Below, one piece after another: positions 38,359-39,135 of a DNA stretch of 64,000 bases. Under the pieces are notes generated by a model that made no database searches, was not told the DNA's origin, and saw only the letters and a list, made by a program, of their open reading frames with translations. The DNA is from Catenulispora sp. EB89. GTDB lineage: Bacteria; Actinomycetota; Actinomycetes; Streptomycetales; Catenulisporaceae. Each line of letters opens with the position of its first letter. Within the stretch, counting starts at the first letter, position 1. The DNA lies in NCBI RefSeq assembly GCF_041261445.1, contig NZ_JBGCCU010000025.1, positions 1 through 64,000 on the forward strand, read 5' to 3'. The position numbers were made by a program, and so were the translations under genes.

Positions 38359-38371
38359 GTGCGGTTCTCAG
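38359..38371 (+). repeat. left target-site duplication
   Basis: GTGCGGTTCTCAG, identical to 39086-39098 and flush with the left terminal inverted repeat. Confidence 0.85.
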
Positions 38372-38402
38372 TGAGGTGATCTCAGCAGGCGATTCGGCCG
38401 TG

Positions 38403-38789
38403 TCAACGGATGATGCAAACCTCCGGCATGGGCAGTCCCCAATCACCCAGTTCAGTAGTGAGGACTCGGCGGGCCAGGTGACGGACTCGACTCCAGCCTG
38501 CATCGGTGGACAGCGCTTCCAGCGTCCACCGATCAGCGTTGTCCGGGCCACTCATCTCCTCGAAGACCGCGTCGATTTCCTGCAGGTCAGACATGGCGCT
38601 AGGACTGAACTGTCCTGCCGCGACCAGATACTCGGCCATGCCGAACGCGTGATCGAAGTCCAAGGCGATTTCGTCCGCCCCGACGCCGTACTTCTCCAGC
38701 CAGGCTACTTGGCTCGAAGCGTCAGCCGCTGTCACGATCAGCGCCTCGATCAGTAGGCGCCGGCCGTACGAAGGACCGGGAGTCTCCAC
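38403..38789 (-). CDS. cargo gene: conserved uncharacterised actinobacterial protein
   Basis: 128-aa soluble, acidic-helical protein from a GTG. Notable segments: GRRLLIEALI, VAWLEKYGVGADEIALDFDHAF near residues 28-49, DLQEIDAVFEEMSG near 67-80, and ADRWTLEAL..AGWSRVRHLARRVL near 85-110. I recognise the pattern as a streptomycete hypothetical family without assigned function; size and composition would suit an immunity or antitoxin-like protein, but nothing proves this. The stop lies 16 nt inside the left inverted repeat, so the gene is wholly inside the mobile element. Confidence 0.7.
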   Translation of the reverse strand: METPGPSYGRRLLIEALIVTAADASSQVAWLEKYGVGADEIALDFDHAFGMAEYLVAAGQFSPSAMSDLQEIDAVFEEMSGPDNADRWTLEALSTDAGWSRVRHLARRVLTTELGDWGLPMPEVCIIR

Positions 38790-38899
38790 GCCACGATCGT
38801 CTCACGTGCCCATCTCCGCCAACCACGCCCAGCATCCATCGGAGCAGGTTGTGCGACTGCCTGAACGCCGTGGGGACCTCAGAGATCCGCGACCCGACC

Positions 38900-39068
38900 G
38901 GGATCTTCTTTTCTGCCAGGCTCGCTGTGCCCCGCGCCATGATCTGGTTCGTCGCCGGACTGCTACGAGAGAACCGGCACACGCTCGGGACCCGGCGGAA
39001 CACCCGCATCCTCACCTGTTTCCGCCCTCGTCCTCACGCAGTTCGAGCACAAGATGATCTGGCGATAG
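38900..39068 (+). pseudogene. putative transposase end fragments inside the element
   Basis: One frame reads ARLAVPRAMIWFVAGLLREN followed by RHTLGTR, which resembles the N-terminal helix-rich region of IS5-type actinobacterial transposases. Another frame reads VSALVLTQFEHKMIWR and stops at 39068, two nt before the right inverted repeat, as expected for a transposase C-terminus. Together they suggest an internal deletion derivative. Similarity is by eye and short. Confidence 0.35.
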
Positions 39069-39085
39069 TCGCTGAGATCACCTCA

Positions 39086-39098
39086 GTGCGGTTCTCAG
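39086..39098 (+). repeat. right target-site duplication
   Basis: GTGCGGTTCTCAG, flush with the right terminal inverted repeat and identical to 38359-38371. Confidence 0.85.
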
Positions 39099-39119
39099 CG
39101 CGTTTCTCACCCCTGGGGC

Positions 39120-39135
39120 CATGACAGCTGTCATG
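39120..39135. promoter_or_regulatory. 16-bp perfect palindrome CATGACAGCTGTCATG
   Basis: Exact dyad 115 nt upstream of the ABC exporter ATPase. Plausible operator for that operon; the likely regulator is the response regulator at 42703 or an unseen repressor. Confidence 0.5.

What the first reader, a model, noticed from the sequence alone, without database searches (positions are those of the whole stretch)
38359..39098. Compact transposed element with perfect ends and a non-transposase cargo gene
Sequence shows 15-bp perfect terminal inverted repeats (38372-38386 / 39071-39085) flush with a perfect 13-bp direct repeat on both sides, enclosing only 714 bp. An exact fit of TIR and target duplication is strong evidence of transposition and of fairly recent insertion. 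It holds one intact gene and no intact transposase, i.e. a cargo-bearing MITE or transporter-IS-like element, mobilised in trans. I do not recognise the TIR family.
Basis: partly seen in the sequence, partly recalled or inferred. Interest (0 to 1): 0.85.

Follow-up and report, generated by a model that had tools for sequence, protein, structure and literature searches.

The report
Crippled transposon carrying a wandering gene
A 710-bp jumping-gene remnant that can no longer move by itself carries one small, apparently working gene, and relatives of that gene ride inside two unrelated families of jumping genes in other soil bacteria, so the gene appears to travel from one mobile element to another.

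Summary
The repeats are real and exact. One key detail is wrong. The 13-bp direct repeat is not the target duplication. The closest relative (98% identical DNA) has the empty site, and it is a 12-bp tandem array of three units. The element inserted into such an array and duplicated only 5 bp, CAGTG (38369-38373 and 39084-39088).

Intact parents exist in related genomes: 973-bp IS5-family (DDE_Tnp_4) insertion sequences with the same ends and 5-bp CANTG duplications. The window copy keeps about 44 N-terminal and 14 C-terminal transposase codons around a ~659-bp deletion. A 128-aa gene sits between the left end and the transposase remnant.

The unexpected part is the cargo. Its homologues in Streptomyces lie inside complete IS21-family elements (ends and 5-bp duplications verified), between istB and the element end, and beside IS110 transposases. 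The window copy still carries about 60 bp of IS21-type upstream sequence. Sibling IS21 elements carry Imm51 or other genes, or nothing, in that slot. A distant homologue follows a polymorphic-toxin-like gene. My best guess for the cargo is an orphan immunity protein (about 45%).

The parts
38359..38373 (+). Unit 1 of the pre-existing 12-bp tandem array (GTGCGGTTCTCA) and the left CAGTG target duplication at 38369-38373
   Evidence: orthologous empty site in G001 (L068) has three 12-bp units
38374..38397 (+). Left end of the IS5-family element: 13-bp TIR AGGTGATCTCAGC plus 11 bp homologous to the intact IS
   Evidence: first 17 bases identical, then TCGG shared with the IS in L002; TIR perfect against the right end
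38403..38789 (-). Cargo gene, 128 aa, GTG start; family of small helical proteins; keeps the family's invariant residues Q27, W30, W88, W99, R103
   Evidence: model mean pLDDT 91.6; dN/dS about 0.3 against the nearest homologues
38790..38850 (-). Upstream leader of the cargo, homologous to the IS21-borne version (GACGATCGTGG before the start codon)
   Evidence: (DNA homology reaches about -61), alignment
38908..39024 (+). Transposase remnant, N-terminal part (about 44 codons; DDE_Tnp_4 family)
   Evidence: 79% DNA identity to the IS in L002; 65% aa identity over query residues 5-44
39022..39083 (+). Transposase remnant, C-terminal part (about 14 codons, out of frame after a ~659-bp internal deletion with 3-bp microhomology) and right TIR 39071-39083
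   Evidence: 93% DNA identity to the IS in L002
39084..39109 (+). Right CAGTG target duplication (39084-39088), continuing into units 2 and 3 of the 12-bp tandem array (39086-39097, 39098-39109)

Best explanation
The feature is a non-autonomous, cargo-bearing derivative of an IS5-family insertion sequence: a mobile insertion cassette, or a degenerate transporter IS. Shown: an intact 973-bp relative exists, with a single DDE_Tnp_4 transposase, AGGTGATCTC.. ends and 5-bp CANTG duplications. The window copy lost about 659 bp of the transposase and holds a 128-aa gene between its left end and the transposase remnant. It inserted at CAGTG in a 12-bp tandem array upstream of an ABC-transporter operon, after the split from the nearest sequenced relative. 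Also shown: homologues of the gene sit inside IS21-family elements and beside IS110 transposases in Streptomyces, so this gene family is carried by several unrelated IS families. Inferred: the window copy came from an IS21-borne version by illegitimate recombination; it moved using a transposase supplied in trans that is no longer in this genome; and it probably encodes an orphan immunity-type protein.
For: TIR and duplication. Empty site in the 98% relative G001. Intact 973-bp relatives L002, L004 and L063 with CAATG, CACTG and CAATG duplications, whose transposases match Pfam DDE_Tnp_4 (L002 and L004). Transposase remnants colinear with L002. The cargo family lies inside IS21 elements with both ends and TSDs: L165 2.80 kb CGTGC, L106 1.14 kb CCCAG, L111 2.06 kb CCCCC. 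It is convergent with and within 46 bp of IstB or IS110 genes or their relics at 11 loci. IS110-linked members share a block from about -91 into the transposase 3' end. The window cargo is nearest to IS21-borne members in the tree and shares their upstream leader. Passenger-slot variation, with Imm51, other genes or none. Distant homologue L164 lies 19 bp after a ricin-B-lectin-domain protein with a toxin-like C-terminus.
Against: No other copy of this exact cargo-bearing element was found in 294 genomes of the order, so its mobility as a unit rests on one insertion. No cognate transposase was found in the assembly; the two DDE_Tnp_4-type genes there are 33-41% identical and lack these ends. 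The direction of cargo transfer and the immunity role are not proven: the cargo matches no Pfam, NCBIfam or PADLOC family and no solved fold clearly.
Confidence: 0.85

Rival explanations
1. A cargo MITE with a 13-bp target duplication from an unknown transposase family.
For: The 13-bp repeat abuts the 15-bp TIR exactly.
Against: The empty site in G001 already has three 12-bp units. Removing the element with a 5-bp duplication gives the same three-unit length; a 13-bp duplication would leave two. Intact family copies show 5-bp CANTG duplications.
Confidence: 0.05
2. The cargo is not a gene on the move between elements but a chromosomal Streptomyces gene beside which insertion sequences happen to land, and which the window element picked up once.
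For: Many homologues, mostly the more distant ones, have no insertion sequence nearby.
Against: In L165, L106 and L111 the IS21 terminal repeats lie on both sides of the cargo plus istB and are flanked by 5-bp duplications. Sibling elements L171 and L172 lack any passenger and have their right end about 54 bp after istB. All 11 close adjacencies are on the same side of the cargo and convergent.
Confidence: 0.07
3. The cargo family is an accessory transposition or regulatory protein that helps insertion sequences of several families, rather than an immunity protein for the host.
For: It recurs in IS21, IS110 and IS5-type elements at the element edge, under purifying selection.
Against: Close IS21 siblings lack it or carry other genes, including an Imm51 immunity protein. 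Distant homologues occur without any insertion sequence, one right behind a toxin-like gene.
Confidence: 0.15
4. The 12-bp array and the inverted repeats are host regulatory DNA, not a transposon.
For: The site lies about 150 bp upstream of an ABC-transporter operon.
Against: The 98%-identical relative and all other genus members examined lack the 710 bp, and the ends match intact insertion sequences.
Confidence: 0.01

Closest known systems
IS5-family insertion sequences (DDE_Tnp_4 / NCBIfam transpos_IS5_4-like)
   Same: Intact relatives are 973 bp with one ~275-aa DDE_Tnp_4 transposase and short TIRs; the window copy keeps both ends and two transposase pieces
   Different: Duplication is 5-bp CANTG; an IS5-family actinobacterial element in PMC2516522 recognises 3 nt. 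NCBIfam scores (68-87 bits) are under the 140-bit cut-off, so the subgroup is unassigned
Mobile insertion cassettes (MICs, e.g. MIC231 and the qnrD MICs, PMC3913671) and transporter ISs (PMC3129680)
   Same: Insertion-sequence ends enclosing a passenger gene, no working transposase, mobilisable only in trans
   Different: Keeps a visible transposase remnant, and the passenger is one found in unrelated IS families
Passenger-bearing IS21-family elements of Streptomyces (found here)
   Same: Carry homologues of the same cargo with the same leader sequence
   Different: Different transposition machinery (istA/istB), different ends (TGTCGGCGTAC), and the cargo is convergent with istB rather than divergent from the transposase

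Membership tests
IS5 family | DDE_Tnp_4 / IS5-type transposase in the parent element | tested here: met
   PF13359 E 4e-17 and 2e-20 in L002 and L004, above the Pfam cut-off; best NCBIfam model is IS5_4 but below its cut-off
IS5 family | Single ORF, about 0.8-1.3 kb, short TIRs | tested here: met
   973 bp, 273-276 aa
IS5 family | Assignment to an ISfinder subgroup and its usual target duplication | not testable with these tools
   ISfinder not held; the 5-bp CANTG duplication is recorded here
Mobile insertion cassette (MIC) | Ends of an insertion sequence, target duplication, passenger gene, no functional transposase | tested here: met
Mobile insertion cassette (MIC) | Transposition in trans demonstrated | not testable with these tools
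   experiment needed; no cognate transposase in the assembly
Transporter IS (tIS) | Functional transposase together with the passenger | tested here: not met
   transposase has a ~659-bp deletion and a frame change
MITE | Short, non-coding, internally deleted | tested here: not met
   intact, conserved 128-aa ORF inside; a cargo-free 273-bp derivative of this family occurs in G012
Immunity proteins of polymorphic toxin systems | Match to a known immunity family | tested here: not met
   no Pfam, NCBIfam or PADLOC match for the window protein
Immunity proteins of polymorphic toxin systems | Gene directly downstream of a toxin gene | tested here: inconclusive
   seen only for a distant homologue (L164), not for the window gene

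The most novel reading that the evidence does not exclude
A small gene family, probably encoding orphan immunity proteins, is specialised to ride in insertion sequences and has moved between at least three unrelated families (IS21, IS110, IS5-type). The slot next to the IS21 helper gene would then act as a general carrier for immunity genes in Streptomyces and relatives.
Probability: 0.35. Interest if true: 0.72.

Novelty: new variant of a known kind. Interest (0 to 1): 0.5.

Why it matters
Insertion sequences are usually treated as carrying only their own transposase. Here one uncharacterised gene family recurs as a passenger at the edge of elements from unrelated IS families, and sibling IS21 elements hold other passengers, including an annotated immunity protein. 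If confirmed, simple insertion sequences would be vehicles for accessory genes such as competition immunity in actinobacteria. The empty-site comparison also shows how a pre-existing tandem repeat can pass for a long target duplication.

Tried and rejected
Exact TIR search over 294 genomes of the order found only the window and G007, so no second cargo-bearing copy. The related-loci scan of genome contigs gave only four Streptomyces homologues. Structure searches with the cargo model (helical, pLDDT 91.6) gave no Foldseek hit under E 0.4 and only generic four-helix bundles at Z up to 7.3, so no function was read from the fold. A designed-protein hit in the sequence search was taken as chance helix similarity. 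No cargo homologue in phages. No sigma-70-like promoter or terminator in the element. A CAGTG-type end in L055 and L062 was set aside as a chance match. The L121 left IS21 end was too weak to count. Literature searches found definitions of MIC and tIS but no listed paper evidently about this gene family or an IS21 passenger slot in Streptomyces; the library is partial and only a few papers were opened.

Full report
Observation. The 13-bp direct repeat, the perfect 15-bp inverted repeats and the single intact 128-aa ORF are at the stated positions. The two TIR copies are the only exact matches in the window. The element occurs once in the 11.9-Mb assembly.

Empty site and true duplication. The orthologous intergenic region was compared in nine other genomes of the genus. 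The nearest, G001, is 98% identical across the ABC-transporter gene and lacks the element. At the site it reads GCGCGGTTCTCA GTGTGGTTCTCT GTGCGGTTCTCA CCCC, which is three 12-bp units. Removing the window element while keeping one CAGTG gives GTGCGGTTCTCA GTGCGGTTCTCA GCGCGTTTCTCA CCCC, with the same number of units. A 13-bp duplication would leave only two. The target duplication is CAGTG at 38369-38373 and 39084-39088, and the element proper is 38374-39083 (710 bp). Because CA and TG flank every complete copy, a shorter duplication with TG..CA counted as element ends cannot be excluded from sequence alone.

Parent insertion sequence. DNA search of relatives hit two separate pieces of the right half of the element in G007, about 660 bp apart. 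They belong to an intact 973-bp insertion sequence (L002) encoding a 276-aa transposase with Pfam DDE_Tnp_4. Further intact copies in G013 (L004, L063) have the same ends. Their duplications, in the order L002, L004, L063, are CAATG, CACTG and CAATG; the window has CAGTG. L065 reads as another copy with CAGTG flanks. A 273-bp internally deleted, cargo-free derivative with CAGTG flanks occurs in G012. The window copy retains 24 bp of the left end, a piece of the transposase 5' end (38908-39024) and the 3' end to the right TIR (39022-39088). The deletion junction has a 3-bp overlap. In the assembly no cognate transposase remains: the other two DDE_Tnp_4-type genes are 33-41% identical and lack these ends. 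The element needs a transposase in trans that this strain no longer appears to have; the assembly is a 70-contig draft, so absence is not certain.

Cargo. The 128-aa protein has no match in Pfam, NCBIfam or PADLOC. Homologues at up to 61% identity occur in 45 of 294 genomes of the order, few genomes outside it, and ten plasmid records. The window copy keeps all invariant family residues. Pairwise dN/dS to its nearest relatives is about 0.3, consistent with selection for function along those branches. The predicted structure is a confident helical bundle without an informative relative. Coding-like base composition by codon position is retained.

Where the cargo lives elsewhere. At 11 loci the homologue's 3' end lies within 46 bp of a convergent IstB or IS110 transposase gene or its relic; at none does such a gene lie within 50 bp of the 5' side. 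In the IS21 cases the terminal repeat TGTCGGCGTAC.. lies 66-104 bp upstream of the cargo start, and the other end ..GTACGCCGACA lies beyond istA or istB. Three elements are flanked by 5-bp duplications: L165 (about 2.80 kb, CGTGC), L106 (1.14 kb, CCCAG) and L111 (about 2.06 kb, CCCCC). The cargo is therefore inside IS21-family elements. Sibling elements with 87-93% identical IstB have the slot empty (L171, L172, with TSDs GTGCC and TCCGT), or filled by an Imm51 immunity gene (L168, TSD GCCGG), or by other genes (L169, TSD AGAAG; L170). In IS110-linked loci a homologous block begins about 91 bp upstream of the cargo and runs into the transposase 3' end. IS110 elements lack TIRs (established knowledge), so those outer boundaries are inferred. 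On the tree the IS110-linked members fall in one clade (99/98) and the window copy is closest to IS21-borne members, though its exact branch is not resolved. The window cargo also shares about 60 bp of leader with the IS21-borne version, ending before the IS21 terminal repeat. I infer transfer of the cargo from an IS21-type element into the IS5-type element by illegitimate recombination.

Function. The best-supported guess is an orphan immunity-type protein. Two facts point there. A sibling IS21 element carries Imm51 in the same slot. A significant distant homologue (L164) starts 19 bp after the stop of a 792-aa ricin-B-lectin-domain protein with a toxin-like C-terminus on the same strand. The alternative, an accessory transposition factor, is less likely because close siblings lack the gene. 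Neither is shown.

Known or new. Non-autonomous cassettes with passenger genes are known as mobile insertion cassettes, and insertion sequences with passengers as transporter ISs (PMC3129680; PMC3913671). The window element is a new IS5-type example of the former. What I did not find described in the limited searches made is a passenger family shared by IS21, IS110 and IS5-type elements.

Noticed in passing
window 39120-39135: Perfect palindrome CATGACAGCTGTCATG upstream of the ABC-transporter / histidine-kinase operon, largely conserved across the genus; a likely operator, possibly for the operon's own response regulator.
   Followed up: partly
window 38359-38370, 39086-39109; L068: 12-bp tandem array (GTGCGGTTCTCA-like, three units) present only in this species and its nearest relative among the genus members compared, between a glycosyltransferase and the ABC operon; origin and role unknown.
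   Followed up: partly
L168-L172 (Streptomyces plasmids): IS21-family elements of one clade have a variable passenger slot between istB and the right end: Imm51 immunity gene, other hypothetical genes, or nothing; four of the five have both ends and a 5-bp duplication.
   Followed up: partly
L054 1241-1513 (G012): 273-bp cargo-free internally deleted derivative (MITE) of the same IS5-type element with CAGTG duplication.
   Followed up: partly
L164 3343-5721: 792-aa protein with a ricin-B lectin domain and toxin-like C-terminus directly upstream of a distant cargo homologue; possible toxin-immunity pair.
   Followed up: partly
L106 (IS21 element of 1.14 kb): Internally deleted IS21 element retaining cargo and istB sequence with CCCAG duplication: an IS21-type mobile cassette with the same cargo family.
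   Followed up: partly
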